This document shows, piece by piece, positions 7,015 through 64,000 of a stretch of 64,000 nt of DNA. Every line of letters starts with the position of its first letter. The stretch's first letter is position 1. Made by a program: the position numbers and the translations under genes. The notes under the pieces are model-generated. The model did not search any database. It had not been told where the DNA came from and saw only the letters and a program-made list of their open reading frames with translations. Origin of the DNA: Gracilariopsis chorda. Taxonomy: Eukaryota; Rhodophyta; Florideophyceae; Gracilariales; Gracilariaceae. The DNA is taken from assembly GCA_003194525.1 (NCBI GenBank), contig NBIV01000206.1, positions 85,791 to 149,790 of the forward strand, given 5' to 3'.

Positions 7015-7261
7015 TGGTGGACACTGAAACTTAGATGGAACAGAAAACTATCAGAAACAGCCAAAACAGGTAATGTGGAATTAGCGACCTTTACTCATAA
7101 GAGGTACCACGCAATCACTTGAGGAAGAACACACCCGAAAAATCGATGATCCTCAACAACACAGCTGGTCACAACACAATTCTAAACTTCAACGTGTAGT
7201 TTGGAAACCCATTAGCCCATCTGGTAAACCAAGAACAAAATTACACTTTGCTGGTATTCTT

Positions 7262-7274
7262 GGTCAGGAGACCA
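7262..7274 (-). promoter_or_regulatory. Primer binding site
   Basis: GGTCAGGAGACCA lies three bases left of the LTR at 7278. On the element's own strand it reads TGG first. It matches the same site in element A (GGTCGGGAGACCA) with one change, so the family uses one tRNA primer. The 7015-7261 stretch to the left is untranslated leader with no recognisable gene. Confidence 0.75.
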
Positions 7275-7277
7275 GTT

Positions 7278-8047: not shown

Positions 8048-8076
8048 CCTTTAACCTACACGCGTCTACGCAGCAT

Positions 8077-9500: not shown

Positions 9501-9930
9501 CATCGTGACTTTTATCATCGTGGCGAGGGTACTGCACCAATGGCGATTCTGAAGCATGTGGGGCTGCTGTCACCGTCGGTGGCGGTGCCAGTACGGATCC
9601 GTAGGCTGAGGTAGTCCGTTAATTCCTCCGAGGCCATGGTGTAGCCGTTTTAGACACGGTGAATGACGTCGCCGATCCCCAGGCGACTCCTTCCCAGCAT
9701 ATAGACAGTTGATGGTTTTTCCCATGAAACAACATAACGGCCGCCCCTTGGTAGCCATATTGTAGTCGCTAGTTTCCAAGTAAATCATACGTGCACCGTA
9801 GCTCTGGTCTTCTTCTCTTCTAAGATCCTGTTCTTATTCACTTCCGTTTCAATCCACGTTGTGTCGTCCGCTTCGTGTCCCGTGCACGACCATTGTCCCC
9901 TACGTAGAGGTTCAGCCAAATTGAGCACGG
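9501..9930. other. Decayed spacer between antisense gene and chromodomain
   Basis: It corresponds to the end of the antisense gene and the 3' untranslated spacer of element A. No intact reading frame is recognisable. Confidence 0.4.
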
Positions 9931-10218
9931 CTAACTGTCCTTGGTGTCGGAGGCCGGTTTTTTGCGGTGGTATTGTAGGCCCTTCGAGCGTGGAAGGTGG
10001 TCAATTGGTTCGAAGTGATCCTCGTCAGGGGAGAACTCGTAACCGCGGATTCTGTACAGCACTTCGCCTTTTCGGTTCAAGTCAGGACTCACGAATTTTT
10101 GAATATCGAGTTCCTCGTCATAAACCTCCCATGAATCCTGCGGCTCCTCAGAGGTTGCCTGGACTTCCCTAGGTGCAAAAGGTTTGATTGATACCTTTGG
10201 TGTGAGGAACCCTGTCAA
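9931..10218 (-). pseudogene. Chromodomain remnant (end of pol)
   Basis: The minus-strand frame reads YDEELDIQKFVS, then GEVLYRIRGYEFSPDEDHFE and PIDHLPRSKGLQYHRK. It lines up with the C-terminal chromodomain of element A (YRVRWYGYDPSGDTWEPIEH, LPRSQIVRYHRQ). One expected aromatic is changed (RIRGYEF for RVRWYGY), and the Trp of DTWEP is Phe. Known role in chromoviruses: recognition of modified histones to direct integration. The copy is decayed. Confidence 0.82.
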
Positions 10219-11670
10219 GCGGAGCTTGAAAGCCCCAAATCGGTTGTCTCAGATCCTCATATCACCTGACGATAGTTAAGCGTTCTGCACATCAAAAACA
10301 AGTCCCTGGGAGTCCCATTGTATCCTTTTCAAGTGCAATTTGTTCTGAGTCTTTAATTCATCTTGGCGTCCCTCGAAACGGTCTGTCGGAGGCAGGAGAA
10401 CTTCTCGAAGTATGAATGTGGTCCGCTCCGGCGGTGTACTTCTCGATGTGAGTGTAGCTGCGTTGCACTTCCTTAGTGAGTGGTGTAATTTCAAGTAACG
10501 TGGAGCCGGCTCCGTGTCTTGTCTGAGCCTATAAGCATCTACGGTTTTGGAGTGCAGCAGTGTACCATTGTCAACAGGTGGGGTCTCGTCTGCCAATGAA
10601 CGTTCATGGTCTGACGAGTGCGTGTCACGTGCACCCTAGTCTCCGGAATAAGTAGTGCTTCCCGTGTAACACAGCGATCTTTTTTGCGGAGGCAACTCTA
10701 CGTCGCATCGTGGCACTTCAATCGGCTCCGAACGAGCTTCCGGTTGTGGTACACGAACTCGCTTTGTCACAAATGACTTCGTTTCATGTTTCTTGCGGTA
10801 TTCCTCTACTATCATGGTATCCCACTATTCGAAAGAGTTCCCCTTCAGGGCGTCCATTTTCCCTCACCCGGGTCTGCAGAAACCAAGTGCCTCGTGGGCA
10901 ACCCAGCAGTGGTGCCCTGGACACCAATTAACGCGACATCCTGTGGATCGATGAAGTAGGTGAACCACTCACTTGGGAACGTGTCGGCCAAAATCGTAGT
11001 TTCCGTGACCCTCACGGCATTATCGGCACCGTGAACTCCGGAATGTGGCGAGGAATTCGACGGAGTAGCGGTATTGTCCTGACCTGTAACCGGTGTGCCC
11101 TGCGACAGGAGCTCCGAAGACTACGTATCCAATAGCGCTAGCTTCCTCCCCTGAGGTGAAAGGACGGGAGCCATGATGTGAGAAGATGGAAGAACCAGTG
11201 CTATTGTGGACAATAAGGGGCCGCTTCAGACGGTGACCGCTTCGGCGGCAACGAGAAGTCTGTAGGGCCCCGTTGCAGGTGGAGTAAGATTAACTGCTTC
11301 AAAATGGGGTCCGCGGGAAGTTGAGGAGGGTTTTTATTGGTGGTGAGATCTGGTACCGGGGATAGCCAAGATACTGTTAGGGGTTTGACGGACTAATCTG
11401 ACGATGGCTGGCGCTACCGTAACTCGGTCACTCGAACTGCGTTCATGCACACCTTTGATATCAAAGACTAAAGTGGTGCCGGAATCGTTGGTTGAAACTA
11501 CACGGTACGCTTAATTATGGATAAGGGAGAGTGTATGTCCCTATCGTTTCGGGAATATAATATTCCTTTTGAAGAAAGACATAATCGTCTTCCCGTGTCT
11601 GCACGATAGATCCGGAAACTTGGTCGTCAAAATCACGCTTGTAGCGCTCCTGGACGCTCTCTACGGCTTT
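10219..11670 (-). pseudogene. Decayed linker between integrase and chromodomain
   Basis: It occupies the place of the roughly 480-residue low-complexity linker in element A's pol. Only short frames remain (for example 10596-10276 on the minus strand), with Pro/Thr/Arg-rich composition. No domain is recognised. Confidence 0.5.
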
Positions 11671-13462
11671 TCACACCTCGAGCACTATCGTTTTTAACGA
11701 TGATTTCCGTGTTTGTCGATGATGCTTCGGCGAGGGATCCTTATCCAGGACATGCTGCGGTTCGATTGCCACCGGTGATGAGCATAACAACAGCACGAGC
11801 TCGAAGGTCGTTAGGACCGTAACCCAGTGTAACTGGGTATTGTATGTGTAGGTTTTGATATACGTATATAGGTCCCAATTCGTAGAGTGATCCTCGACGA
11901 AGGTCCAAAGAGCATTAAAAAACTGTACGGTGGAACAGTTCCACTCGATCATTGGTCTGCGGGTGATACGTTGTGGTTAACCAGTTCTTAACGTCCCATA
12001 TCCGGGAGACATTCTGGAAAAACGTCGTGGTAAATAGAAATCCATTCTCTGACAGGAGAGCGCTCGATTGGTTATGGTTAGACACCCCTTGCATAAAAAA
12101 GTGTTGATACACCTTAGCAGCAAGACTATTCTCACCAGCACTGGCTTCCTAAAGGAGGAGAACTGCCAGCCACGCAATGGCAGACCTAAGAACATTACAA
12201 CCTAAACAGTTAGGGTACATTATGGACTACCCTTTATCCACGAGTCGTAGTTCTAAGGAACAGAAACAATACATAATAAGTAATTCCCGACTCTCCAATT
12301 GAGTTCTGAGGGCACCATTATCGTCGGTGTCCAATCCCGTGCATTGCCCTTCTAAAAACTGCAAAGCGACCACAGACATTCAACTGGTCAAGAAAGCGTT
12401 TTGTTGGTTAGCTACGATACGCGGTTGAAGTATGTACGAACCGCACGCGAAGCAAAGAACAGGCACGAAGGGCTCAAAGGTCTCTGTAAGGCTGTTCCAC
12501 CATTCTCTGGAGTTCTTCCTTGGGAGGCAGGCGTATTTATGTTCTACTTCTAAAGCGCGTAAGCTTCTGCTGAGGGCCACCCATACCTGCGTGGATTGCG
12601 TGCGCGCTGCGTGGACAACCCCGCATTTGAAACAGCTTCAGCTTAAATTTGGCTTCTTCCGGAAGCAGCTGTTCCCGTTTTGGGGAATTGCTCAAATCAT
12701 CAACAGTCCCCAACAATTAAATGACTGGTTTGAGTAGTGCAGTTCGATGTTGCGAGCAATTTTCCGCTGACCCTGCGTCTCAGACGTTTCCAGGTCCTCA
12801 ATACACTCCCTCATTAATACGGTTTTAATACATCTTTGCGGCAAGGTGACCCTGAACAGCAGTGACGTCCCGAAGGTGGAGCAATGCCAGCCAAACAAGG
12901 AGACAATTGAGCACATTTGGCCTAAAAAGTCAGCATACCTTTCGAACTACCTTCTACCCACGAATCATAGGTGGTAAGGACAAAAAAAATCAAAGAATTA
13001 CATACTTTGTTCTGGAGGGCTAAGGGTACCCGCCATCATTGCGGATTTTTGTTGGTGCCTAGTCGTGTGCATTGCCCTTCAACTAACCAAGAGGCAACCG
13101 TAGACGTGCAACTGATCAATGCAAAGGCTTGGGTCATCGTTGTGGTGGTAATACTCTTTAGGGGGACCGTCCGAGTTATTCTCGAGAACCTGTCAGTGAT
13201 GACCAATAAATAGCGGTTACCCCGTGGTCTCCAGATGAATTTGCTCCTCATATCAAGAGCAAAAAGCTCCAGAGAAGCACAAGGTGGAAATACCATCAGT
13301 TTCTCCGAATACGTCCGCAGCGACACGCAATGTTTCCCACAGAGCAAGCAACTGCGCACCGTTGCGTATGGGTTGAAGCACATCATGGGCCAGTAGAATT
13401 CTTTTTTTAGGCATTGTGTAACTCCATTCCGCCAGGATGAGTGGCACGTTTTGCGTAGTTTG
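11671..13462 (-). pseudogene. Decayed integrase, rearranged
   Basis: 11952-11671 and 12112-11915 carry the end of the catalytic core: LLSENGFLFTTTFFQNV, then IWDVKNWLTTTYHPQTNDRV, then WDLYTYIKTYTYNTQ. The glutamate region YHPQTNDRVELF departs from A's SNGQVERF. 13515-13036 carries the zinc finger and first core part: KEFYWPMMCFNPYATV, then RYLLVITDRFSRITRTVPLK. Between them, 12083-13130 contains two further diverged integrase-like copies (see the repeat entry). The frame is then cut at 13462 by a solo LTR and resumes after it. Confidence 0.78.
12083..13130 (-). repeat. Two diverged direct copies (~330 bp) in the integrase region
   Basis: 12083-12405 and about 12800-13130 align over their whole length. 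Both contain CCAGCCA, GACTACC or GAACTACC, a CCCACGA or TCCACGA block and GTGCATTGCCCTTC in the same order. Both also resemble integrase sequence. An internal duplication, or a piece of a related element inserted here, would explain this. Boundaries are approximate. Confidence 0.5.
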
Positions 13463-14288
13463 TGTGTTGCAATGCCCCAAAGGGGAAAACACCGAAAGAC
13501 GTTCGGGATCTTCATCTCACGAGGTGAACCCAGTTGGGTAGAGCCCTCCCAGAGGTGTCACGGCAAAGCCGGTTTGTAAGACCAGGGACACCTGTCGAGA
13601 CTCGCACAGGGAGGTGAAGGTGAAGAATCAGTATCCGCGTGAGCGGGGTGTGATCCTCAGTAGAGGTATGTTTCCACGTAAGTGGGGGTGTGTGAACGGA
13701 TGCGCACACGAGGGCCGCGGATAGCGGGAGGTGCTACCCTAAAAAGCGGGAAAAGTGAGGGCGAAGAGGAGGAAGAGAGGACGAAGTGAGTCGCGAGAGC
13801 GACTTACAGATACAGCAATGCCGGTGGACAGGACTCCCTATACAGGGAGAAACACCAATATGATTGGAACAATTATACTCCTAAGGATGGGCTTCTTTAG
13901 ATGTGCAAGGGGGTTAGAAGTCCCGTGGTTTACGGCGTTTCCCTCCGAGGAGGAGTAGAGCACGCGCGCAAGCGGCAACAACTAGAGCCAATTCCCCAGG
14001 TTGGGGTCCCTTGTTGGGGAAGGTTTACTGGTGCGACGGCAGTGCGCCGTCGCAGTAAGTACTAGCTTCCCAGAAATGGGTGTGAAAATAATAAATAATA
14101 TTAACTAAAATACTAAACATTTCGTGGCAACATCCACTACTGTGGCCAACCGCCAATTGACCCATAACCGTTTCCCACGTGTCCATATCCACCATAGTGG
14201 GGCGTAGTTCATATACACACTACACAACCGATAATATCGGGAAAGCGTTCAAGTACCAAGAATCCCTCCCTGAGGGCGTTGCACTTCA
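13463..14288 (-). repeat. Solo LTR of the A family
   Basis: This 826-bp LTR starts TGTGTTGCAATGCC and ends GTTGCACTTCA, very similar to the LTRs of element A through its full length. It is flanked on both sides by GTTTG (13458-13462 and 14289-14293), a perfect 5-bp target duplication. The integrase frame of the host element continues across it. This is the usual product of LTR-LTR recombination that removed the internal region. Confidence 0.93.
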
Positions 14289-49594: not shown

Positions 49595-49599
49595 GTGTC

Positions 49600-52524: not shown

Positions 52525-53331
52525 TGTGGTGCAATGCCCCAAAGGGGAAAAACACCGAAAGACGTCCGGGATCTTCCTCTCACGAGGTGAACCCAGTTGG
52601 GTAGAGCCCTCCCAGAGGTGTCACGGCGAAGCCGGTTTGTAAGACCAGGGACACCTGTCGCGACTCGCGCAGGGAGGTGAAGGCGAAGAATCGGTATCCG
52701 CGTGAGCGGGGCGTGATCCTCAGTAGAGGTATGTTTCCACGTAAGTGGGGGTGTGTGAGCGGATGCGCACACGAGGGCCGCGGATAGCGGGAGGTGCTAC
52801 CCTAAAAAGGGGAAAGAGGAAGGACGAGTGGGTCGCGAGAGCGACGAGTAGATACGGCAATGCCGGTGGACAGGACTCCCTATACAGGGCGAAACACCAA
52901 GATGATTGGAACAATTAGTACTCCCAATGATGGGTCTCCTTTAGATGTGCAAGGGGGGTGAACTTCCGTACACTACGGTGCTTCCCTCCAAGGAGGAGTT
53001 GAGAACACGCGGAGGCGGTAAAGCTCAGAGCCAATTCCCCAGGTTGGGGTCCCTTGTTGGGGAAGGTTTACTGGTGCGACGGCAGTGCGCCGTCGCACTA
53101 AGTACTAGCTTCCCAGAAATGGGTGTGAAAATAATAAATAAAATTAACTAAAATACTCCACATTCCGTGGCAACATCCACTACTGTGGCCAACCGCCAAT
53201 TGACCCAAAACCGTGTCCCACGTGTCCATACCCACCGTAGTGGGGCGTAGTTCATATACACACTACACAACCGATAATATCGGGAAAACAATCAAGTACC
53301 AAGAATCCCTCCCTGAGGGCGTTGCACTTCA
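52525..53331 (-). repeat. Element A 3' LTR
   Basis: TGTGGTGCAA...TTGCACTTCA, imperfect inverted ends. More than twenty short hairpins can be picked out by eye, for example CCCC-AAA-GGGG (52537-52547) and a 10-bp stem with a 5-base loop at 53074-53098. Confidence 0.95.
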
Positions 53332-53341
53332 TATCCCCCCC
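53332..53341 (-). promoter_or_regulatory. Element A polypurine tract
   Basis: TATCCCCCCC on the plus strand, GGGGGGGATA on the element strand, directly next to the 3' LTR. Confidence 0.8.
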
Positions 53342-53386
53342 TAAGACGGGAAAACGACCGCGGACGCGGAGGATTCCCAGACGAAA

Positions 53387-55174
53387 ATGGGTGATAAAAG
53401 CAAGTGCTTTGTCTCCGGTTCTCCGGTAAATTCCTCTGCACCAGAGTCCTCAAGTGCACAAACGACAACAACAGCCACCCTCGACAAGGGAGAAATGAAC
53501 GACGACAACAACATCAACAACCACAGCCAACCTCCGAGACTTCTCGGGCGATACACCACCGGTTTCCGGTCAGTTCCCCTGCCTCAGGGCGATCGAAATC
53601 CGGTACGACCGGGAAATACGGCTGCTGAAGCCGACCATCCCTTCGCACTACCACCTTCGGTGGTGTCCTCCGGAACCACTCCGGTGTCCAACTGGCCAAC
53701 TTACAACACCCTGGTGGGGCTCAACCCGATGAATCGGAATCACGCGTCGCGCCTGCGCCTTGCCCCGTGGTTTCACCCGGTCGCTGTCCTCAATGAGGGG
53801 TTGGTCACCGCTTATGCGGATGGTTCAGACACCCTTCCGGGGGAACTGCCCAGAGCAGTCACCACATCGTGGGATTGGCGTCACCGGATTGCGATTCCGC
53901 GTCACCACCTCCGAAGAAACTCGGGCGAGACCGCCGCTGCGGCGCAGACCGCGCTGACGCGCATGGCGTACCAACGGCAGAGCCGGGCTCCGTTCGATGT
54001 ACCGGTCCCACCGGAGTTTGGCTTCGACATTAGCTACTTCCGCACTCGCGGGGAGATTGGGTACGGCGAGAACCTGTTCCGCCTCGAGACCCTCGCTTGG
54101 AGGAATTTCCCTGCAGCGCGGCAAGAGGCCCTTTGCTGGGAGCGACCGATTATTCGGGCGGAGTTCAGGTACCTTCCCCGGCAATACCGGTCCAACTTTC
54201 TCCAAAACTTCATCCGCTACGAGCGGCGTTGGCGATCCCGATTCGGGTACTTTATCCCGTATCAGAACGTGGAGATAGAGCGGATTGCGCCGCCTCACCG
54301 ACTAGGTAGGTATGTAGCACTCCCCGAGTGGTGGCGCTTCCATGAAGCCTGCCGGGGGTGCTACGTAGAACTTCCGCCGGTACTTACGTACCTCGGTTCG
54401 CTGCTCATGCAGGATCCCCGGTCGGGGTTGTGGTCCGTAGTGGTTACGGAGTGGGCGGCCCGCAATGCGGCTTATATCCTCAACGAGGCGTACGACCAGT
54501 ATCGTCTCTGGTTCCTTCAACCGCGCGTGCGGGCAGCGATCCGAAACCTGGATCTTCGTATCCCCCTTGGGGGCCAGGCCAACAATGAAGAGGTCCTCCA
54601 ATTACTTGGGTACATCGACAGCGTTAGCTGGAGTGAGGTCCCGCTGGAGCAAAGCGGTCGTCTGGATGGCGGCAGCGGTAACACCGGTGGCCCGGGACTG
54701 GGTAGAAACACCGCCCTTGCGGGTGATTTTATCTACTTCGACCCCTGGGAGTTCCGGGAAATTTCCTCCGAGGAGGCGCGCGAACTTCGCGATGCGCCCC
54801 GGCATGTGCCGGAAGACCACCCGGTGGGGTACGTCGATTCTGACGATTACTACCGCGCATACGGCGGGGATGACCCAATGGTCGATAACGATCCGGAAGA
54901 GCCCGGGGAGATGGACGTAGAGGACACCGGCGCTAGCGCGGAAGCTTCCCCAGAGGGGGTACCTCCGGCCGAGCCGGCTGCTGACCCTTCGGCGGCGAGT
55001 GCCGGACCTTCTATCCCCAGCGGGGTAACGGCGAATGAAAACGAGATCATCGCGCGTTTTCTCCGGGGTGCCGGTCTTAGCGCTGCCGAGGTATCGGGGG
55101 ATGTCACCACCATGGCGGACGCGTTGGCCTACCGCCTTGCTGGGGGTTACGCCCCGGGCAACGGCGAAGAGTGA
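53387..55174 (+). CDS. Antisense accessory gene of element A, unknown function
   Basis: 595 codons, fully open, on the strand opposite gag-pol. It starts 56 bases inside the 3' LTR. The start MGDKSKC is supported by an equivalent ATGGG near 8077 in the older element. Residues 1-60 are Ser/Thr/Asn-rich. About 60-470 is an Arg/Trp/Tyr-rich folded-looking region (FGFDISYFRTRGEIGYGE, NFIRYERRWRSRFGYFIP, YVALPEWWRFHEACRGCYVE, WSEVPLEQ, GDFIYFDPWEF). About 480-560 is strongly acidic and Pro/Ala-rich (DDPMVDNDPEEPGEMDVED). No known domain, signal peptide or membrane segment is seen. An AATAAA follows 89 bases after the stop. A basic-then-acidic layout would suit a nucleic-acid- or Gag-binding regulator, but that is conjecture. 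Confidence 0.88.
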   Translation: MGDKSKCFVSGSPVNSSAPESSSAQTTTTATLDKGEMNDDNNINNHSQPPRLLGRYTTGFRSVPLPQGDRNPVRPGNTAAEADHPFALPPSVVSSGTTPVSNWPTYNTLVGLNPMNRNHASRLRLAPWFHPVAVLNEGLVTAYADGSDTLPGELPRAVTTSWDWRHRIAIPRHHLRRNSGETAAAAQTALTRMAYQRQSRAPFDVPVPPEFGFDISYFRTRGEIGYGENLFRLETLAWRNFPAARQEALCWERPIIRAEFRYLPRQYRSNFLQNFIRYERRWRSRFGYFIPYQNVEIERIAPPHRLGRYVALPEWWRFHEACRGCYVELPPVLTYLGSLLMQDPRSGLWSVVVTEWAARNAAYILNEAYDQYRLWFLQPRVRAAIRNLDLRIPLGGQANNEEVLQLLGYIDSVSWSEVPLEQSGRLDGGSGNTGGPGLGRNTALAGDFIYFDPWEFREISSEEARELRDAPRHVPEDHPVGYVDSDDYYRAYGGDDPMVDNDPEEPGEMDVEDTGASAEASPEGVPPAEPAADPSAASAGPSIPSGVTANENEIIARFLRGAGLSAAEVSGDVTTMADALAYRLAGGYAPGNGEE

Positions 55175-55262
55175 GCTCCTTTTGTCCAGTTTTCCTGGTA
55201 TTCTTTCCCTGGCTATGCCAGTTAGTGTAGTGTAGTATCGTGAGGAGCTAGCTGCTCCCCTG

Positions 55263-55268
55263 AATAAA
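55263..55268 (+). terminator. Probable polyadenylation signal of the antisense gene
   Basis: AATAAA on the plus strand, in the 193-base gap between the convergent ends of the antisense gene and pol, which meet tail to tail. Confidence 0.55.
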
Positions 55269-55367
55269 CTTTCCCGTTTAGAACGGTGATTTCCAATTAG
55301 CATTCCCCGTCTTAGACGGACTTTCCCTTGCTATCCTTTCTCATTGCCCTCCGCTCGCGCGGCAACG

Positions 55368-58300
55368 TTACCCAACTTGGGCATTAACCAGCGTGGCTGG
55401 GGCTGCAGTTCCCGTTTGACGGTGGTATCGCACGATCTGCGACCGTGGGAGGTGTTCAATTGGCTCCCACGTATCCCCACTGGGGTCGTACCCGTACCAG
55501 CGGACGCGGTATTGTAGAATACCATCCTGGTCCCAGGTGTGTCCGACAAGTCGGTCTACTACGAACTCTCGTTCGTAGACCTGCCGGCCGTGCCGGGTGG
55601 TGGTTGTACTCCCTTGCGAGGGTTGTCCGCGGTGCGGTATAATGTCCCTTAGCAGGGTGTTCGGCGATAACTCCGACGTTGCCGTGCGCTGTCCTAGTGG
55701 CCGCTGCTCATGCGGGAAAATATCCCTCAAGAGGGTATGTGGTGTCACGGTTTTCCCCGGCAAGTCATTCCCCATTGGGGTGTCGTTGTTCCCGTCTTCA
55801 CGGTAGGCCAGGCGAACCGCCAACCGGCGGGGGACTTGAACTCCGCATTCGCGGTTGAACTCACGAACCGCGAGTTTGCGGGAAGATGACCGCTCCTGCG
55901 GAATCGGCGTTTCCACGATCCCCTGGGGGGTCCCGTGCGACACGGTGGTTGGATGGCAAACCGCCTCCCTGCCAGGCGCACGAGCGCTCTGCACCGTACG
56001 TTCCGGCGGCGCCGTGGTGTCCCCGGCTACTGGGGGGTTGCCTAAGGCTAACTCCGGTACACCGGTATTTTGGTCAAAATTCCCCTTTGGGGGGTGCCGG
56101 GCAGGTGCCGATGACACCCTTTTCAGGGGCCTGGCCGCTAAGTGCGGTGCACCGTCTCCATGAGGAGGAGCAGCGTCCGGTACGACCGGTTTCGAGCGTG
56201 CGATGGCGCGCGTTTTTCCCGAGTTCCTCGGTTCTTCGCCGCAGCGTTGCGGTAGTTGGCGCAAATTATTCCCCGGAACGGGGGCTTCGATTTCGTCTGC
56301 GGCGGGGAGCGTTTCCGAGCGCTGCGCGCCAGGGCCTGAAGCTTCGGATGCGGCTTGGCTACCCTTTTCCCCGATAGGGGTGTGGGTATTTCCCAGCGGC
56401 GCTGGTGTATCTGGGCGCCTCTTCTCCGCGGGGCGCGGGTCTGAGCGACCTGATTGAACCGCTTCCGCGGGGACTTCCGCCAATGGCGGCTTTGAGGCAT
56501 CTCCCTGCTCAGGGGATTGAGGGCGATTGTCGCCATACTCCCGTATCGGGGATCCTTCCCTGACAGGGGTGTGCGGTAGCTGCGTTTCAGCTTCCCGTGT
56601 AACACGGTGTATTTGCCGCCTTTGCGGGACCTGCGCGTCTGGTTCCTGTTGCACAGCGCTGCCCGAGGACGGGGGATTAGTGTCGCGTGAGATACTCCGT
56701 GCTCCACGGTCAGTTGTCCGTATGGTACGGCGTGTTTCCCGTTGCGACGGCGATCTCATTCCTCGAAAACGAGTGTTCTCCTCCCCCTCCTGAGACGGAG
56801 CGGCGGGATAAGGGATAACATGCCCCGCCTGGCGGGTGTAGATTCGCGCCATAGGGGCGGGCACAGAGAGGCCCGAATTACCCGGCTGAGCCGGTGAGTC
56901 CGACAGGGTCGGTAGGTCTGAGAGTCCCCGGGAGGGGTGTGGTAGCACGGTAGGCCGTCTCACCACCGATGTATCGGATGCAGAGCCATATTCCAGCGTA
57001 GGGTCCAGCGTAGCTGGTGCAGCCTCAGTCGAGGGTGGCGGAGCTAGCACGATGCGATCGCGAGATAACCGCTCATGCTCGTCACCCATTTCCACAACCA
57101 CTGTGTCCGTCGTGACGGAGATAACCTTGAAAGGACCATCCGCCACAGGCGAGAGCTTATGGTGCTTCTCCCTTTCAGGGTTGTAGTACTCCTTGCGGAC
57201 GAATACGAAGTCCCCGGAGTTGATCTGTTCCGGTTTGCCTCCTCGCAAGCGAGCATCGAAATTCCGTTTGTAGACGGCTTGGGCGTGGTCCATCGCCTTC
57301 CGCGCTGCGGGTACCAGCTTGGTCAGCCATGCTTTCCACTTCTGGCGGTAATCCTTAACAGAAGGGAACGCGTCCAACGTAGGTTGGGATTCCAACGCCA
57401 TTGGCGGGGGTGTCCGTGAAAGGACCAACTCGAAAGGGGATATTCCGGTAGTCCGGTGTACCTGCGTATTGTACGCAAAGGTCACGGCATCCGTGTAGAT
57501 ATCCCAAGTCTTGGGGTGGTCAGCCGTGTAAGCACGGAGAGCTGCGAGCATTGTCCGGTTGAAACGCTCGACCTGCCCATTAGACTGGGGATGATACGTG
57601 GTCGTGAAGAGATTCTTCACGTCCAGTATCCGACAGACGTCCTGGAAAAATCGCGATGCGAACTGTTTCCCGTTGTCGGAAAGTAGCTCCAAAGGAGGTC
57701 CGTAGGCAAACACCCAATGCCGCACAAAGGCGTGAGCGACCGTGTAGGCGGTAATCCTCTTTAGAGGGACTGTCCGAACTAATTTCGAGAACCTGTCCGT
57801 AATAACGAGTAGGAACTTGTTGCCTCTCCTGGTAGAGAGCAATGGTCCGAGAATGTCAATTGCGACAAACTCGAGCGGCGCCCTGGCGGGGAATAGCTTC
57901 ATCCGTTTGGAGTGCTTCCGGAGTTTGACCCGGTTCTTCGCGCATTGCGTGCAAAACCGCACCGTAGCGTAGCAATCAACCGCCATGGCGGGCCAGTAGA
58001 AATCCCTGCGAAGGGTTAGATAAAGCTTCCTCCCACCGGAGTGTCCCCCGAGTTTCGGGTAATGCGAAAGGTGCAATATCCGCTTCTGTAGCGTGTGCGG
58101 TACCACAACTTGTGGGGTAGCCTCGACGGTCCTCACGAGGTAACCAATGTCGTTCACCCCGAAGGGGAGGTTCTCTCCGCCGTTGAGGCGTGCACGTATC
58201 CTTGTACAGAAGGGGTCCCCGAATTGTTCTCGGATCATTTCCTCGGTCTCAGCCGGTACATAATTTCCCGGTATGGGTTTCTCAGAATCATCTCGCGATG

Positions 58301-60032
58301 CGAGTAGGTAGTCGAAGTCAGCATCTTCGTCCCAGTTTTCTGGCTCAGCCTCGACGGCACATTCCGGATCATCCGGGTCCATTGCCATGAAACATGGGAC
58401 TTCATCATCCTCCGTTGGGAGTGCCTCCCCACTTGTGGGTAAACGCGACAGAGCGTCGGCTTGGGTGTTCTGCGCGCCCTTTTTATAAATGACTTGGAAG
58501 TCATATTCCGCGAGGCGGAGTCTCCAGCGCATGAGGCGTCCCGACGGGTCGGAGATATTCATTAACCACCTCAGTGAGGAATGATCCGTGTACACGGTGA
58601 AATGGACTCCCATAAGGTAGGGGCGCAGAGTGGTCATCGCCCATACGACGGCGAGGCACTCTTTCTCCGATACGGAGTAGTTCCGCTCATGGACATTGAG
58701 CGAGCGCGACCAATAACCAATTGGGTGTCGTTCCCCCTCGGGGGTGGTTTGAAAAAGAGCACACCCGACTTGGTAGTCGCTCGAGTCCGTATCTGGGGAG
58801 TATGGCAACCCAAGTTTTGGGAGATGTAGGATTGGTGCTGATGTGACAGCCTCCTTCAAGGAGTTAAAGGCTTCCGATTGCTCGGGCGTAAATGTTCCCA
58901 GTTTTGGGGGGTTCCCCTTTCGCAACAACGCGTTCAGGGGCGCTGCAGTATCCGAAAAGTTCGGGATAAACAGTCGATAGACGTTGACCAGCCCCAGAAA
59001 GGAGCGCAGTTCCGTTTGAGTACGGGGTTCTTTCGCCTCAACGAGGGATTTGACTCGAGCTTTCTCGATCGCTAACCGTCCAGGACGGATAATGTGACCC
59101 AGATACTTCACAGTATCTGTGAAAAACTCGCATTTACTCAACTTGAGGGTAATTCCCGCATCGCGGAGTACGGTCAGCACGTCTCGGACGTGAGTGAGAT
59201 GGTCGTCCAATGAGTTGGAGAAGATGATAATATCATCAAGGTAGACCAGACAACTCCGCCACTTAAAGCGGTTGAGTAGGATATCTACTGCACGCTGAAA
59301 GGTGGCGGGGGCGTTGGTTAACCCAAATGGCATCCGCTTGAAGCGGTACGTTCCTGCATGGCAGGTGAATGCGGTTTTGTCGCAATCCTCCTGTCTGACA
59401 GGTACTTGCCAATATCCCCAATTGGCATCAAGGGCCGTGAACACGGTGGCGTCTCCAAGGGAGTCAATGCACTCGTCCATACGAGGGATGGGGTACGTGT
59501 CCCTAACAGTCACGGCATTGAGCCGGCGGTAGTCGACACAGAACCTCCAGGTTCCGTCAGCCTTTAAAGCCAGTACAACTGGGGATGCCCAGGGCGATTG
59601 AGCGGGCTCAATCACACCTGCGCGGAGCATCTTGTCCACCTGGGCCTGCTCCTCTTCCCGAGCTTTCGGACCTGCCCTGTAAGGGGGTTGTGCAACCGGT
59701 CGCGCACCGGGGATTAAATCGATCCGGTGTTCCGTTGCATCAATCTCGCCAAGCGAGCCATCCCACATTGTGGTGAATTCCCGTAACATAGTACGGAGTT
59801 TGTTGCGGTGCGACTCTGGCACGTGGCTGAAGTCCAGCGCTTCAAGTGCTTTTTTCCGGATCAATCCGGTCATTGCTCGATGGAGCATTGTCCTGTGGAA
59901 CAGGTGTGGTTCGCAATTCCGAGTTACTCGGTATGTTCGACGCGGAAGTAGCGGTTTCCTCCCCCTCCTTAGACTTGACGTCTTCGGACGGCGGGGTGAA
60001 CTCCTCAGAAGAGGTGGTAACTCCGAGTACAT
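55368..60032 (-). CDS. pol: Element A pol: RT, RNase H, integrase, chromodomain
   Basis: 1554 open codons. RT: WRFCVDYRRLN, MPFGLTNAPATF (residues 234-245) and catalytic YLDD (264-267). RNase H, about 405-525 (YSPDTDSSDYQVGC, YSVSEKECLAVVWAM, VYTDHSSL). Integrase zinc finger, about 640-700 (HYPKLGGHSGG, FCTQCAKNR); catalytic core with D (VAIDILGPL, ~724), D (LLSDNGKQF, ~786) and E (NGQVERFNR, ~820). A roughly 480-residue Pro/Arg/Ser-rich linker follows. The chromodomain is at about 1480-1535 (YRVRWYGYDPSGDTWEPIEH). All catalytic residues are present. The first ~60 residues of this frame are probably not the natural N-terminus, because a 74-codon frame (60066-59842) continues the protease more convincingly. 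Confidence 0.93.
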   Translation of the reverse strand: MYSELPPLLRSSPRRPKTSSLRRGRKPLLPRRTYRVTRNCEPHLFHRTMLHRAMTGLIRKKALEALDFSHVPESHRNKLRTMLREFTTMWDGSLGEIDATEHRIDLIPGARPVAQPPYRAGPKAREEEQAQVDKMLRAGVIEPAQSPWASPVVLALKADGTWRFCVDYRRLNAVTVRDTYPIPRMDECIDSLGDATVFTALDANWGYWQVPVRQEDCDKTAFTCHAGTYRFKRMPFGLTNAPATFQRAVDILLNRFKWRSCLVYLDDIIIFSNSLDDHLTHVRDVLTVLRDAGITLKLSKCEFFTDTVKYLGHIIRPGRLAIEKARVKSLVEAKEPRTQTELRSFLGLVNVYRLFIPNFSDTAAPLNALLRKGNPPKLGTFTPEQSEAFNSLKEAVTSAPILHLPKLGLPYSPDTDSSDYQVGCALFQTTPEGERHPIGYWSRSLNVHERNYSVSEKECLAVVWAMTTLRPYLMGVHFTVYTDHSSLRWLMNISDPSGRLMRWRLRLAEYDFQVIYKKGAQNTQADALSRLPTSGEALPTEDDEVPCFMAMDPDDPECAVEAEPENWDEDADFDYLLASRDDSEKPIPGNYVPAETEEMIREQFGDPFCTRIRARLNGGENLPFGVNDIGYLVRTVEATPQVVVPHTLQKRILHLSHYPKLGGHSGGRKLYLTLRRDFYWPAMAVDCYATVRFCTQCAKNRVKLRKHSKRMKLFPARAPLEFVAIDILGPLLSTRRGNKFLLVITDRFSKLVRTVPLKRITAYTVAHAFVRHWVFAYGPPLELLSDNGKQFASRFFQDVCRILDVKNLFTTTYHPQSNGQVERFNRTMLAALRAYTADHPKTWDIYTDAVTFAYNTQVHRTTGISPFELVLSRTPPPMALESQPTLDAFPSVKDYRQKWKAWLTKLVPAARKAMDHAQAVYKRNFDARLRGGKPEQINSGDFVFVRKEYYNPEREKHHKLSPVADGPFKVISVTTDTVVVEMGDEHERLSRDRIVLAPPPSTEAAPATLDPTLEYGSASDTSVVRRPTVLPHPSRGLSDLPTLSDSPAQPGNSGLSVPAPMARIYTRQAGHVIPYPAAPSQEGEENTRFRGMRSPSQRETRRTIRTTDRGARSISRDTNPPSSGSAVQQEPDAQVPQRRQIHRVTREAETQLPHTPVREGSPIREYGDNRPQSPEQGDASKPPLAEVPAEAVQSGRSDPRPAEKRRPDTPAPLGNTHTPIGEKGSQAASEASGPGAQRSETLPAADEIEAPVPGNNLRQLPQRCGEEPRNSGKTRAIARSKPVVPDAAPPHGDGAPHLAARPLKRVSSAPARHPPKGNFDQNTGVPELALGNPPVAGDTTAPPERTVQSARAPGREAVCHPTTVSHGTPQGIVETPIPQERSSSRKLAVREFNRECGVQVPRRLAVRLAYREDGNNDTPMGNDLPGKTVTPHTLLRDIFPHEQRPLGQRTATSELSPNTLLRDIIPHRGQPSQGSTTTTRHGRQVYEREFVVDRLVGHTWDQDGILQYRVRWYGYDPSGDTWEPIEHLPRSQIVRYHRQTGTAAPATLVNAQVG

Positions 60033-60066
60033 CGGCGGTTGTCATCTTCGTTGGCAGCATTCCCAT
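59842..60066 (-). CDS. Protease-RT junction in a shifted frame
   Basis: The frame MGMLPTKMTTADVLGVTTS, then acidic and Ser-rich to DRIDPEKST, matches the older element at 3858-4085 (LIPTKMCAADVLR), where it is joined to the protease in one frame. In A it is separated from the protease by a shift near AACCCCCAT (about 60080-60090) and from RT by a shift at the A6 run near 59850. The two shifts compensate each other. Confidence 0.65.
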   Translation of the reverse strand: MGMLPTKMTTADVLGVTTSSEEFTPPSEDVKSKEGEETATSASNIPSNSELRTTPVPQDNAPSSNDRIDPEKST

Positions 60067-60959
60067 AGGATGGGGGTTACACTCCCAATTACTTGGTGTT
60101 TGACCAGATACTGGGGGTGTTTGCCAAGGTTGGCAACCAATATCCGGAAAGGAACATCCGGGGAAATGGAGACAATTCCATTAGCCAGCGCCAGCTGGGA
60201 TTTCTCGTACAACGAGGCGAGGGGTTGTATAACCCGAAGACCGTGTTGACGGGAATTTACCTGTACCCAGACTTGGGACTCAGCCGGTATAGAAACCGAG
60301 GCAGCGACGCGGAGCTTGGTGGACTCGCGGGACGCGGGCGGTGGCTCCTGCGCAGCAGGGAGCGGAACTTGTTTCCGAGAGGACCGCTTTAGCGGGCGGC
60401 GAACAATCGGAACCGACGATCCGTCGTCAAGTTCTACACGCCTGAGGCGGGGCCTGATTGCGTCGACAAATCTGTCGCAGTAATCACATCCCAGTATGAC
60501 TGGTGCTGCCAGTGAACGGCAAACGATGAAGTCCAACTTCACCACAGATGTACCAAGTCTCACGACGAGGTCCACTGTGCCCACCGTTTGTAACGGATTG
60601 TTGTTCGCATCCGAAATGTCGGGGACCGCGTCAGAGCGGATACGCGACCGCACAAGCGGGGGTAACAATGATTCCACAACAAAGTTGGGGCCTGCACCTG
60701 TATCCAGGACGGTGAGAAACCTCACCATAAACTGGGGGTCAAGGCCAAGGTCGGCATAGACCTTATAATTGCGTTTGGCCAAGACCAAGACTCCACCGGG
60801 AATCCGGGGATTTTTACTCCGTATCCACGGGCGACGCAACACACCGAGGTGCGCAGAGTCCGCGTCAGCGGTGTCTTTCCTCGAGAGGACTTTCACCGGG
60901 GAGCGAGGCGAGGACGCCTCGGGCGCCAACAGCCTCGTTCTTGAGGACGCCTCTCCCAA
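60042..60959 (-). CDS. Element A aspartic protease
   Basis: 305 codons. Active site FLTVLDTGAGPNFVVESLLP, with D-T-G at residues 86-88, later VILGCDYCDRFVDAIRP. It continues to GKHPQYLVKHQVIGS, where it should pass into the TADVLG frame. Known role: maturation of the Gag-Pol polyprotein. It is in the same frame as pol but separated from it by a stop at 60042. Confidence 0.88.
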   Translation of the reverse strand: MGEASSRTRLLAPEASSPRSPVKVLSRKDTADADSAHLGVLRRPWIRSKNPRIPGGVLVLAKRNYKVYADLGLDPQFMVRFLTVLDTGAGPNFVVESLLPPLVRSRIRSDAVPDISDANNNPLQTVGTVDLVVRLGTSVVKLDFIVCRSLAAPVILGCDYCDRFVDAIRPRLRRVELDDGSSVPIVRRPLKRSSRKQVPLPAAQEPPPASRESTKLRVAASVSIPAESQVWVQVNSRQHGLRVIQPLASLYEKSQLALANGIVSISPDVPFRILVANLGKHPQYLVKHQVIGSVTPILWECCQRR

Positions 60960-60976
60960 AGGGGAGACTCCCTCAG

Positions 60977-62536
60977 TTAGTTTTCCGCCTTCGGCGGTTG
61001 GTTGGTTTCCTCGACCACGAGTGCTTCATCCTGTTGACGGGGGTTTCTATCCGCATAAGCGGGGGTTGCAACGGATGGTTGCGTGATCTCCCGAATCGGG
61101 GTGTATGAAGCTTGCCGCGCACGCGGGGTCTGTGGTAGGGCATGGGAAAAGTCCGTTTTAGCACGGAGGTAGGAAGCCGTCGGGACGGAACTTTTCTCCT
61201 CTGGAGTGAGGGCCTCATAATTTGCCACTACCTTGGCCATATCCTTCAGTGAACAAATACACTGAGGTGAGGTATGGCCATGGGCATAGCACAGGTGGCA
61301 AATGAGAGCCAACACCGCGACACGCGGATTATTATTCCGAGTATCGGAGAAGCGAACCGCAGGGCGGGTGTCAGTCCATCCAGGCCGTTGATAACGGGAT
61401 TGACCGTTTGAAAACGGGAGTCGTTGGGGTTGAACCCGACTGTTACCACAGTATAGAACGGGATCTCTGTTCCCGTATCATGGGTCATCTCCGTCGTTGA
61501 CGGTAAACTCACTGGTGGGTATCGACACACCATCCTCCTGCGCTAAATGCACGGTATCAAATCCCTGTCCAGGGTTCCCATCCGCGGTGAGCGGGAGAGA
61601 GGAAGCTTCGCTTTCCAGCAACAACGCCTTGGCGGATTTAGACCGATTGTTCGGAGTTCTTGCACGAAGTGCATCCCCTTCCGCTCGAGCGTGTTGGACC
61701 AGCTCGAGGTAGGTGATCCTTCGCTTGTCCTCCCGATAACGGGTAACTAAACTCCGGATTGCCGGGTCAAGACCATCAATGAACATGGTACTGCGCTCCC
61801 CAGCGGGGTATACGTTACCACATCTGTGGAAAGCCTTGTTAAGGCGCACCGAGTAATCGGTCTCGGTCTCTCCAGCACGCTGGCGTGTATCTCGCAAAGC
61901 GAGGATAGCCTGCTGAATAGCGGTGTTGGTGGCGTAGGAGCGCAGAAGATACTGCACAGCCTCCGGCCAGCAAGTAACTCCTCCCTCGGAGGCGCGAGAA
62001 GATCCTCGGACAGAGGTGTATTGGTCCTCGGCCACTCCCCGTAAGAAATACGGTAAAGCCAAATAGGCTTGTCCCTCATTCATACCGAGGATATCGGCCT
62101 CCGCTACAAAGCGGGATAGGAAATCCAGTACTAGGACTGGGTCCTCTCCAGTAAAATACTGGTTGCGGAGCGAGAGCTGCATTCGCTTAATGCATTCTCG
62201 CACCTTTCCCGTACCACGGGGCGTACGTCCAAGTGACGAATCTTCAAGCCGGTAGTACCGGTATGATAAAAGCTTCCGATAATCCGGGTTTGTCGGTTTC
62301 AATTCCCGGAGACCGGGGTGTCTTCTCCCCTTCTGGCGGGTTCGGACCACACCTTCAGTGGCCGATGACCGCTTCGAGCGGGAGGAGTAGCCTCGCTTCT
62401 CGTCCTCCGAGTCGGAGTCCGAGGAGCTCGAGCTAACCGAATGGTTTCGGGGTGAGTCCGACGATGTCGAAGAATCGGAGTCCGAATATTTTCGGTGATG
62501 TTTCCGTCGGTGACGGCGTTTTCTTCTTCCCAGCAA
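60977..62536 (-). pseudogene. gag: Element A gag, capsid and nucleocapsid
   Basis: 62536-61478 starts in a basic and Ser/Asp-rich segment, then capsid-like (GGVTCWPEAVQYLLRSYATN, NKAFHRCGNVYPAGE, MFIDGLDPAIRSLV). The same frame continues after one TGA at 61478-61480 into 61315-60977, which has the knuckle CHLCYAHGHTSPQC (C-x2-C-x4-H-x4-C). The TGA separates capsid from nucleocapsid, an odd place for programmed readthrough, so mutation is more likely. Confidence 0.8.
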
Positions 62537-63151
62537 GCTGGTCGTTGTGCGATGCCTCGTTTACCGGATCACCCGGGGATGGTTTGTCCATGAGGACGAA
62601 CTGCTCCAGCGTCTCCAGGCGGGCACCAATCCGATCAAATCGGGCTTCAACTCCTTCGATGAAGGCGGCGGGTTGTCCCAAACTCTCCAACACGGAGTTG
62701 ACGTCAGACCGTAAAATACGGAGCTCCTCGGCGACCTCCTTTACGGGGGTTGCCGAGACCACCTCTTGGAGGATTTTAGTTCCCCTACAAGGGTGTCATG
62801 GGCGGTCCACAGAGCGCGGACCTGGGATTCCAGGGAAGTCCCTGGGGGGTGTTATCACCCGTTCCACGGGGGCTTGAAGCCGCGGACAGCGGGAGCAGGC
62901 CGGGGTGCCTGGGGCACTGCGGCAACAGCCGGAGTCGATGCTGCATTCCCCTGCGGGGGTGATAACGAGGGCAAAAGGAGGTTCCGGGGTTCCCGGTCGG
63001 GGGTATCATTCCGCGATGAAGCGGCGCCAGCACGGCTGGAACTTGTCCGTATAGGGATACGGGGTACGAACCGAACTTCGGAAGTGTCCGCGTTGTCGCG
63101 GGAGCGACTACGCGTAACCACTGGCTCCGCGTCGGAGGGATTTCTCGACAT
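62433..63151 (-). pseudogene. gag: Element A gag, N-terminal part in shifted frames
   Basis: 63151-62855 (MSRNPSDAEPVVTRSRSRD, Pro-rich) is in the capsid frame. 62762-62433 (EELRILRSDVNSVLESLG, FDRIGARLETLEQFV) is in another. A short piece between them (SLESQVRALWTAHDTLVGE) is in a third. All three parts align with one another's neighbours in the older copy at 6277-7014, where the latter two parts are coiled-coil-like. At least two single-base shifts are implied, one in the AAGAAGAAAACG run near 62525. Confidence 0.65.
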
Positions 63152-63240
63152 GAGAAAATACCGTTACGACGGGAAACGATCACGGAACTTCCGGTGAATG
63201 AAAACAAACCTCGTAAGAGGGAAAACAAAAACCGATTCTA

Positions 63241-63253
63241 GGTCGGGAGACCA
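63241..63253 (-). promoter_or_regulatory. Element A primer binding site
   Basis: GGTCGGGAGACCA, three bases from the 5' LTR; on the element strand it reads TGGTCTCCCGACC. It is shared with the two older relatives in the window. Confidence 0.85.
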
Positions 63254-63256
63254 CTT

Positions 63257-64000
63257 TGTGGTGCAATGCCCCAAAGGGGAAAAACACCGAAAGACGTCCG
63301 GGATCTTCCTCTCACGAGGTGAACCCAGTTGGGTAGAGCCCTCCCAGAGGTGTCACGGCGAAGCCGGTTTGTAAGACCAGGGACACCTGTCGCGACTCGC
63401 GCAGGGAGGTGAAGGCGAAGAATCGGTATCCGCGTGAGCGGGGCGTGATCCTCAGTAGAGGTATGTTTCCACGTAAGTGGGGGTGTGTGAGCGGATGCGC
63501 ACACGAGGGCCGCGGATAGCGGGAGGTGCTACCCTAAAAAGGGAAAGAGGAAGGACGAGTGGGTCGCGAGAGCGACGAGTAAATACGGCGATGCCGGTGG
63601 AACGGACTCCCTATACAGGGCGGAACACCAATATGATTGGAACAATTAGTACTCCCAATGATGGGTCTCCTTTAGATGTGCAAGGGGGGTGAACTTCCGT
63701 ACACTGCGGTGCTTCCCTCCAAGGAGGAGTTGAGAACACGCGGAGGCGGTAAAGCTCAGAGCCAATTCCCCAGGTTGGGGTCCCTTGTTGGGGAAGGTTT
63801 ACTGGTGCGACGGCAGTGCGCCGTCGCACTAAGTACTAGCTTCCCAGAAATGGTGTGAAAATAATAAATAAAATTAACTAAAATACTCCACATTCCGTGG
63901 CAACATCCACTACTGTGGCCAACCGCCAATTGACCCAAAACCGTGTCCCACGTGTCCATACCCACCGGTAGTGGGGCGTAGTTCATATACACACTACACA
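63257..64000 (-). repeat. Element A 5' LTR, truncated by the window
   Basis: Matches 52525-53270 almost base for base; about 60 further bases are expected beyond the window. Confidence 0.95.

What the first reader, a model, noticed from the sequence alone, without database searches (positions are those of the whole stretch)
52525..64000. Retrotransposon A is saturated with short perfect hairpins, in LTRs and in genes on both strands
Reading the element, 4-10-bp inverted repeats with 3-5-base loops occur about every 20-40 bases. Examples: CACGG-CAT-CCGTG (57483-57495), CCCAA-GTC-TTGGG (57503-57515), CCGTG-TAAG-CACGG (57524-57537), CGTGAAGA-GAT-TCTTCACG (57603-57621), CTCCG-CGT-CGGAG (63125-63137), TTTCTC-GACAT-GAGAAA (63141-63157), and a 10-bp stem at 53074-53098. 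By chance a 5-bp stem with loop 3-5 should occur about once per 340 bases. The pattern crosses LTR, gag, pol and the antisense gene, so it is not one structured RNA domain. The older relatives show weaker traces (CCCC-AATT-GGGG near 7918), and elements C, D and T do not show it obviously. Possible causes: template-switch correction of quasi-palindromes by the element's own RT, selection for a folded RNA genome, or avoidance of small-RNA silencing.
Basis: seen in the sequence. Interest (0 to 1): 0.87.

Follow-up and report, generated by a model that had tools for sequence, protein, structure and literature searches.

The report
Retrotransposon built from selected hairpin units
A mobile element of an unidentified eukaryote carries hundreds of tiny, exactly matched hairpins of one fixed design spread through its genes and ends, and comparison of its copies suggests that natural selection keeps and renews them, which I know from no other element.

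Summary
Element A, a Ty3/gypsy chromovirus on the minus strand, has 470 short hairpins where shuffles give 153. A synonymous-codon shuffle of pol leaves 14 of 96 CC-type hairpins. The hairpins share one design: 5'-CC plus 2-3 pairs, loop 3-4, GG-3', strictly Watson-Crick, pairing beyond the CC avoided, centres on a ~20.5-nt lattice. Density is similar in LTR, UTR, gag, pol and the antisense gene. Sister families at 70-73% pol identity show it too, mostly at other places. One copia stretch, one distant gypsy stretch and tnp2 do not; two decayed relatives at about 40-56% show little or none. Private changes in copies hit stems almost neutrally, transmitted changes avoid them. Between subfamilies losses are a third, and gains three times, of random. 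This points to selection rather than template-switch mending: loop inversions are nearly absent and compensations too few. My preferred mechanism is an array of recognition units for an element-encoded coat (Gag/NC), one slot per ~20 nt.

The parts
52525..64000 (-). Element A: Ty3/gypsy chromovirus LTR retrotransposon filled with short hairpins (reaches the window edge)
52525..53269 (-). LTR (3' LTR in element sense); 25.5 CC-hairpins per kb
   Evidence: self blastn 98.7% to the other LTR; density
63257..64000 (-). LTR (5' LTR in element sense), reaches the window edge
53387..55174 (+). Antisense gene, 595 aa, 22.4 CC-hairpins per kb; 74 matches scored at 94-100% in the own genome (a capped list); relative at 39-41% in L062
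   Evidence: no match in Pfam at cut-off, NCBIfam, PHROGs or PDB
55368..60032 (-). pol: RT, RNase H, integrase, C-terminal chromodomain; 21.9 CC-hairpins per kb
   Evidence: Pfam, density, codon shuffle
60042..62536 (-). gag/protease region, stops inside when read in one frame; zinc-knuckle-like CX2CX4HX4C read by eye; 22.0 CC-hairpins per kb
   Evidence: codon shuffle of 61478-62536 only
57483..57495 (.).
57503..57515 (.). Example unit, canonical CC type, stem 5 loop 3: CCCAA-gtc-TTGGG
57524..57537 (.). Example unit CCGTG-taag-CACGG, stem 5 loop 4
53074..53098 (.). 10-bp stem in the LTR, also at 63805-63829; longer than the canonical units and perhaps a separate feature
   Evidence: in the old LTR all but its outer pair is kept
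13463..14288 (-). Old relative's LTR, 90.7% to A's LTR; 16 CC-type hairpins vs 1.4 expected
2000..13462 (.). Decayed relative of A (longer pol pieces 42-56% aa, antisense-gene relative at 8365-9453); weak excess (any-type 190 vs 149.1, sd 15.0; CC-type 17 vs 9.4)

Best explanation
The hairpins are an element-wide array of degenerate recognition units kept by natural selection. One unit is 5'-CC, two or three further Watson-Crick pairs, a loop of 3 or 4, and GG-3', with the bases outside the CC/GG unpaired. Units sit on a lattice of about 20.5 nt; vacant CC sites may be filled by hairpins with other ends. SHOWN: fixed geometry; strict complementarity without a fixed half-site sequence; similar density in all parts; same flank polarity on the element's sense strand in pol, gag and the antisense gene; near-neutral private changes but few transmitted stem changes; units at mostly different places in sister families. 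INFERRED: avoided outer pairing plus polar flanks mean that the units are read folded in a single-stranded intermediate (genomic RNA or cDNA). Each hairpin adds a little, so single hairpins are dispensable but the array is maintained. The preferred end of the stem (CC in A and L033, ACC/TCC beside CC in L050/L060) drifts with the family's reader.
For: Geometry: stem5/loop3 61 vs 1.2, stem4/loop4 85 vs 4.4, stem4/loop3 39 vs 4.5; in A pairing outside CC/GG in 5 of 168 frames where about a quarter is expected. Covariation: in all 375 CC-N8/9-GG frames, pair 3 is complementary in 55.7% (30.1% from the column make-up), pair 4 in 53.6% (26.4%); first 40 kb of the window 29.4% and 29.7% vs 25.3% and 25.5%. 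Synonymous shuffles. Selection, A plus 19 loci of distinct copies: stem/spacer ratio 0.86 for singletons, 0.29 for shared, 0.52 for fixed changes. Third codon positions of stem pairs 1 and 2, counted in both directions: 1/116 and 2/154 vs spacer 123/1889 (L017-L019), 1/115 and 0/165 vs 81/1848 (A-L011). A to L017: lost 19 vs 60 random, gained 17 vs 5.5 +/- 2.6; A to L019 20 vs 60.6 and 15 vs 5.3. Polarity: A after GG vs T before CC is 54 vs 13 in pol, 18 vs 6 in the antisense gene. Lattice: period 20.5, reached by none of 500 random placements; after shuffling gaps z 3.9 over 300 nt, 1 of 500. [quoted passage not shown]
Against: No binding evidence of any kind; Gag is only inferred. G-U is not enriched in sense (20 vs 19.7), odd for RNA; DNA energy parameters fit better than RNA ones (100-nt windows, sense: z -1.76 vs -1.01), so the read form may be cDNA or duplex DNA. 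20.5 bp is also close to two turns of B-DNA. For A's longer genome in a Ty3-sized shell the ratio would be nearer 40 nt per Gag (arithmetic). Within 130 nt the gap shuffle is not decisive (42 of 500); the lattice is weak (z about 2, CC units) or absent (all units) in L033 and L050; other-end hairpins relate to CC units best at 24.5 nt (z 3.6), less at 20.5 (z 2.4). Stem changes shared by copies: 0 sense wobble, 7 antisense wobble, 2 other, too few to use. Changes fixed one by one show no excess of gains (5 vs 5.3) nor do shared ones (2 vs 2.7); only the whole subfamily comparisons do. LTR (11 vs 3) and untranslated parts (9 vs 6) show no significant polarity. Outer pairing is not avoided in L050-type stretches (13 of 36 frames paired). 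A gypsy relative at 36140-40650, 38-55% identical in pol pieces, has no excess; decay or a true absence cannot be told apart.
Confidence: 0.38

Rival explanations
1. The antisense-gene protein is the reader: it binds the units in the element's DNA or transcripts and blocks silencing, as VANC proteins do with motif arrays in VANDAL transposons.
For: The gene is conserved (39-41% to L062) and numerous (74 matches scored at 94-100%). It occurs in the four hairpin lineages looked at: A, L062 of the L050 type, truncated in the L033-type copy L063 (21 residues by tblastn, more by eye), and the old window relative. VANC precedent: passages read of PMC5735166.
Against: VANC motifs are fixed sequences, mainly in non-coding DNA and spread by tandem repeats; here half-sites vary but co-vary, lie in coding DNA too, and one short 17-nt tandem array is all that is found in the element. 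No library names the protein. Whether hairpin-free gypsy elements lack the gene was not tested.
Confidence: 0.22
2. Mutation, not selection: reverse transcriptase (or repair) switches template at near-palindromes and makes them perfect at each cycle.
For: Strict Watson-Crick complementarity without wobble; loops change faster than spacers in most comparisons; known process in yeast (PMC8604942 passages) and in DNA replication (PMC8794818, search listing only).
Against: Loop inversion in 1 of 31 distinct multi-change loops. Compensated pairs 5 of 341 where arm copying predicts about 29 (arithmetic mine). One-mismatch frames are above, not below, expectation (124 vs 88.7). Gains among singletons 6 vs 5.1 and among shared changes 2 vs 2.7. 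Fixed stem length, CC ends and avoided outer pairing are not expected. Caveats: singletons may be post-insertion changes or assembly errors, so they test the RT step poorly; [quoted passage not shown]
Confidence: 0.1
3. Selection for RNA structure that hides the transcript from small RNAs, from dsRNA formation with the antisense transcript, or from a host sensor.
For: Hairpins of all kinds cover 37% of A against 10% shuffled; unit spacing is near small-RNA length; A carries convergent genes.
Against: No G-U enrichment and no consistent sense/antisense difference in folding. A-T pairs are accepted while G-U is not. A fixed CC end and fixed stem length are not needed for hiding.
Confidence: 0.12
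4. Duplex DNA is read: a dimeric protein binds palindromes on one face of the helix every two turns.
For: CC-to-GG distance is about one turn and unit spacing about two turns of B-DNA; no wobble enrichment.
Against: Co-varying, non-fixed half-sites, avoidance of outer pairing in A and loops faster than spacers are features of folded single strands; 4-5-bp stems should not extrude from duplex DNA (established knowledge).
Confidence: 0.12
5. Chance, base composition or codon usage.
For: A is G+C-richer (56-57%) than the rest of the window.
Against: z 19 against dinucleotide shuffles, z 25 against synonymous shuffles of pol, mirror repeats without comparable excess, seen in sister families at mostly different places.
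Confidence: 0.01

Closest known systems
Dispersed packaging signals / genome-scale ordered RNA structure of RNA viruses (recalled; search had no hits, one search gave a listing only)
   Same: Many degenerate stem-loops spread over coding and non-coding sequence, kept by synonymous choice
   Different: Here one strict unit (CC/GG end, 4-5 bp, loop 3-4), no G-U, a ~20.5-nt lattice, hundreds per element, and a retrotransposon; no coat binding shown
VANC anti-silencing motif arrays of Arabidopsis VANDAL transposons (PMC5735166, passages read)
   Same: High-density, element-specific units beside an element-encoded accessory protein; unit type differs by family
   Different: VANC motifs are fixed short sequences in tandem repeats, mainly non-coding; here self-complementary, not fixed in sequence, in genes as well
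Template-switch-made hairpins (PMC8604942 passages read; PMC8794818 listing only)
   Same: Perfect short inverted repeats in coding DNA
   Different: Loop inversion and frequent arm homogenisation, the marks of that process, are nearly absent here
Coding palindromes in mitochondrial genes of Nematomorpha (PMC6649704, start of abstract in the listing only)
   Same: Numerous perfect inverted repeats embedded in protein-coding genes
   Different: Those reach 284 bp; here 11-14-nt units of fixed geometry under selection
Plant Retand gypsy elements with antisense ORFs (PMC11963269, search listing only)
   Same: Gypsy element with an antisense ORF; I recall it lying between pol and the 3' LTR
   Different: Retand is a non-chromovirus lineage; A is a chromovirus by its chromodomain; no hairpin array is mentioned in the listing

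Membership tests
Ty3/gypsy (Metaviridae) chromovirus | RT, RNase H, integrase in gypsy order, chromodomain at the C terminus | tested here: met
   PF00078, PF17917, PF17921, PF00665, PF00385 in that order
Ty3/gypsy (Metaviridae) chromovirus | LTRs flanking gag-pol | tested here: met
   LTRs of about 745 bp at 98.7%; zinc-knuckle-like motif in gag read by eye; no Pfam gag match at cut-off
Dispersed packaging signals | Many degenerate stem-loops under selection across the genome | tested here: met
Dispersed packaging signals | RNA-level pairing, G-U allowed | tested here: not met
   sense G-U 20 vs 19.7 expected
Dispersed packaging signals | Stem-loops bound by the coat protein | not testable with these tools
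   needs binding or cross-linking
Template-switch-generated hairpins | Loop (spacer) inversions between relatives | tested here: not met
   1 of 31 distinct multi-change loops; the yeast precedent concerns longer arms
Template-switch-generated hairpins | Arm homogenisation, giving compensated pairs at about the neutral rate | tested here: not met
   5 of 341 pairs, about 29 expected (arithmetic mine)
VANC-type anti-silencing array | Fixed short sequence motif, tandem, non-coding | tested here: not met
   variable co-varying half-sites, similar density in coding and non-coding, one short tandem array
VANC-type anti-silencing array | Element-encoded protein that binds the motif and lifts silencing | not testable with these tools
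   antisense gene present but function unknown

The most novel reading that the evidence does not exclude
A retroelement clade has evolved a general-purpose hairpin code: its whole genome, protein-coding sequence included, is written in strictly complementary units of one geometry on a ~20.5-nt lattice, so that a self-encoded coat reads shape plus a CC/GG end rather than sequence.
Probability: 0.4. Interest if true: 0.93.

Novelty: categorically new. Interest (0 to 1): 0.86.

Why it matters
If true, a mobile element carries a second, shape-based code laid over its protein code at about 20 units per kilobase, maintained by selection among copies. It would make selective packaging, self/non-self marking or anti-silencing of retroelements directly testable with synonymous-shuffled elements. 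It would also give a natural data set, many young copies and several sister families in one genome, for measuring selection on nucleic-acid shape. The passages, abstract starts and listings seen (searches; passages) describe nothing like it; the library holds open-licence papers only, and the combined searches returned no papers at all.

Tried and rejected
Chance and codon usage: rejected by shuffles. Mirror repeats as a control: no comparable excess. Loop inversion as a template-switch mark: 1 of 31. G-U or A-C asymmetry to tell RNA from DNA: no clear difference. Known RNA families in the element: none at gathering score. Antisense-protein identity: nothing in Pfam at cut-off, NCBIfam, PHROGs or PDB; no structure could be predicted. 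Relatives in IMG/VR: 4 pattern stretches, none confirmed. Host: a noted guess of Perkinsus (recalled) is not supported. The own genome's cytochrome c1 matches many solved cytochromes c1 about equally; the listing names no organisms, and by recall the top entries are plant and animal while the apicomplexan one is lower. The host stays unidentified. Codon phase: hairpin starts spread over the three phases (32, 35, 35 in pol). Papers: passages only of PMC5735166, PMC8604942 and PMC6525542; all others search listings only.

Limits: 28 A-type loci (L001-L028) are not 28 copies; L001 and L021 are the window's own, L003 and L025 one copy. 30 RT loci L029-L058 are the 30 best of 150 listed PF00078 matches; kinship to A was tested for L033, L050 and L060 only, the other 28 of the 30 are placed by near-identical counts. 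L033 and L050 align to about half of pol, so many of the 79 and 82 hairpins called lost lie outside the alignment; the fair figure is stem sites 109/317 vs spacer 615/1852 different (L033) and 106/319 vs 623/1853 (L050). Only one copia, one distant gypsy and one further A-clade stretch of 2 kb each were fetched as contrasts. One search drops 1898 sites with under 5 alleles, 34 with a gap, and, for gains and losses, 31 singleton and 6 shared changes where A holds the minor state. The copies share ancestry, so counts are not independent events.

Full report
OBSERVATION. The quoted hairpins are there. In 4-kb bins, hairpins with stem >=5 and loop 3-6 are 0.55-1.77x shuffled in the 13 bins before A and 2.65, 4.13 and 4.76x in the three bins of A. 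For A with both LTRs there are 176 against 46.5 +/- 6.9. A wider definition gives 470 against 153 in one LTR plus the body. The excess lies at loops 1-6 with stems 4-6, which reduces to stem 4-5 with loop mainly 3-4 once loops under 3 are opened. Mirror repeats and longer loops show no comparable excess. A shuffle that keeps the protein and its codon usage leaves 14.2 +/- 3.3 of 96 CC-type hairpins in pol, 7.6 of 37 in the antisense gene and 2.5 of 22 in gag 61478-62536. The pattern is therefore carried largely by synonymous choice.

THE UNIT. Of the 470 hairpins, 234 start with CC and end with GG (20 expected). Counted on the sense strand as maximal CC-start stems with loops of at least 3: stem 5/loop 3 61 vs 1.2, stem 4/loop 4 85 vs 4.4, stem 4/loop 3 39 vs 4.5, stem 5/loop 4 15 vs 1.3, stem 4/loop 5 17 vs 3.0, stem 4/loop 6 12 vs 2.7. 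Pairing one step outside CC/GG occurs in 5 of 168 frames of A where about a quarter is expected, and in 4 of 106 (L019), 2 of 36 (L033) and 3 of 40 (L063), but in 5 of 17, 5 of 11 and 3 of 8 of the L050-type stretches L050, L062 and L060, where units tend to start one base further out, ACC or TCC. Perfect CC/GG frames are 221 vs 15.5; frames with one mismatch 124 vs 88.7. Sense G-U at pair 3 or 4 is 20 vs 19.7. In all 375 CC-N8/9-GG frames, not selected for pairing, pairs 3 and 4 are complementary in 55.7% and 53.6% against 30.1% and 26.4% from the column make-up. The half-sites therefore co-vary and are not one fixed motif. On the element's sense strand A follows GG more often than T precedes CC: pol 54 vs 13, gag 25 vs 11, antisense gene 18 vs 6, LTR 11 vs 3 (p 0.057), other untranslated 9 vs 6 (not significant). 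In the antisense gene the polarity follows the element, not the antisense mRNA.

THE LATTICE. Distances between CC-unit centres peak near 21, 42 and 63 nt. A period of 20.5 stands out against random placement with exclusion of 14-18 nt (none of 500 reach it) and, over 300 nt, against shuffling of the gaps (z 3.9, 1 of 500); within 130 nt the gap shuffle is not decisive (42 of 500). In 38 gaps of 36-46 nt, 15 hairpins with other ends lie 15-26 nt from the upstream unit, though geometry favours the middle; over all, other-end hairpins relate to CC units best at 24.5 nt (z 3.6; 2.4 at 20.5). L017 and L019 repeat the 20.5 period but share many hairpins with A; L033+L063 and L050+L062 show it weakly for CC units (z about 2) and not for all units.

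DISTRIBUTION. Density is 20.7-25.9 CC-units per kb in LTR, untranslated parts, gag/pro, pol and antisense gene. All 28 A-type loci, some of them overlapping, have it (any-type 2.5-3.2x). The 30 best RT loci of the own genome fall into two groups by their counts: 7 like L033 (CC 13.8-14.7 per kb) and 23 like L050 (CC 7.2-9.0 per kb); all have any-type 2.1-2.8x. L033, L050 and L060 are 70-73% identical to A's pol. Contrasts: copia L059 26 vs 28.6, gypsy L061 at 30% identity 36 vs 27.8 (sd 5.7), tnp2 43 vs 42.7. In the window, gypsy 29282-35081 (42% in its RT piece) has 64 vs 78.7. The gypsy relative at 36140-40650, with pol pieces at 38-55%, has 66 vs 59.8. The old relative at 2000-13462 (longer pieces 42-56%) has 190 vs 149.1 (sd 15.0), but its LTR is about as full as A's (16 CC-units vs 1.4). 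So the trait is seen in a clade at 70% or more; whether the decayed relatives lost it or never had it cannot be told. The stretch 48000-52500 is mildly raised (84 vs 60.7, sd 8.3) and unexplained.

EVOLUTION. A and L017 differ at 12% of pol sites yet hold 92 and 91 CC-units: of A's 92, 53 identical, 23 kept but changed, 5 replaced by an overlapping unit, 11 lost. Between A and L033 stem sites differ as much as spacers (109/317 vs 615/1852), so units are re-made elsewhere (about half of pol aligned). At third codon positions, counted in both directions, stem pairs 1 and 2 differ at 1/116 and 2/154 against 123/1889 in spacers (L017-L019), and at 1/115 and 0/165 against 81/1848 (A-L011). Loops differ more than spacers at first and second positions (24/409 vs 126/3824; 29/424 vs 106/3741); at third positions this holds for the two close pairs but not for A-L017 (46/233 vs 453/1860). 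Hairpins are commoner in the variable end of pol, which may add to this. Among A and 19 loci of distinct copies, private changes hit stems almost neutrally (56/1599 vs 264/6505 in spacers, ratio 0.86), shared changes rarely (8/1599 vs 112/6505, ratio 0.29), fixed differences to L017-L020 at ratio 0.52 (34/1599 vs 265/6505). Hairpin losses are 55 vs 57.8 expected among singletons, 7 vs 21.7 among shared, 29 vs 55.5 among fixed changes; gains are 6 vs 5.1, 2 vs 2.7 and 5 vs 5.3. In the full A-L017 comparison 19 are lost (60 random) and 17 gained (5.5 +/- 2.6 random); A-L019 20 and 15 (60.6 and 5.3). The simplest reading is selection against loss and, over longer times, for gain. Weak points: singletons may be post-insertion changes or assembly errors, copies are related, and single shared or fixed changes show no gain excess.

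MECHANISM. Template-switch mending is disfavoured: loop inversion 1 of 31, compensated pairs 5 of 341 with spacer divergence 8.5%, where copying one arm onto the other would give about 29 (arithmetic mine), and no deficit of one-mismatch frames. Reading in a folded single strand is inferred from outer unpairing, polar flanks and fast loops. Whether RNA or cDNA is read is open: DNA parameters give stronger folding than RNA ones (100-nt windows, sense, z -1.76 vs -1.01; the two window controls near 0, L061 -0.65 and -0.40), and wobble is not enriched. [quoted passage not shown] This is a coincidence of numbers, not a test. The antisense protein is the other candidate: conserved, numerous, unknown to the libraries searched, and present at least in part in the four hairpin lineages looked at.

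NOVELTY. Membership in the dispersed-packaging-signal kind fails one tested feature (G-U) and leaves the central one (coat binding) untested; VANC-type arrays and template-switch hairpins each fail tested features. I therefore call it categorically new, with the caution that the literature seen is open-licence only and mostly as listings.

Noticed in passing
53387-55174 (+); L062:534-2348 (-); L063: The antisense gene is a conserved family without a match in the libraries searched (74 matches scored at 94-100%, 39-41% to a sister family); the L063 copy is truncated and shows a second start-like peptide further upstream.
   Followed up: partly
60042-62536 (-): Read in one frame, this copy's gag/protease region has stops, and its pol frame (1557 codons open) is shorter than the 1885-codon open frames of many other copies.
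   Followed up: no
53074-53098 and 63805-63829: A 10-bp stem in both LTRs, kept but for its outer pair in the old LTR at 13463-14288, longer than the canonical units; perhaps a terminator or processing signal.
   Followed up: no
L028 (G000:C701): The antisense gene lies in inverted orientation twice within about 6 kb of one contig (7752-9536 minus, 12180-13964 plus): an inverted duplication or an assembly artefact.
   Followed up: no
14334-15117 and 35036-35819: An unclassified repeat of about 785 bp, 90% identical, next to the old LTR and in a gypsy region; the first copy lacks hairpin units.
   Followed up: partly
48000-52500: Mild excess of hairpins of all kinds (84 vs 60.7, sd 8.3) just outside A, without the CC signature.
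   Followed up: no
pol of A, L011, L017, L019: Hairpin loops change about twice as fast as spacers at first and second codon positions, as if loops were mutation hotspots or free of constraint.
   Followed up: partly
25492-26457 (+): Transposase_21 (tnp2) fragment of a DNA transposon, without hairpin excess.
   Followed up: partly
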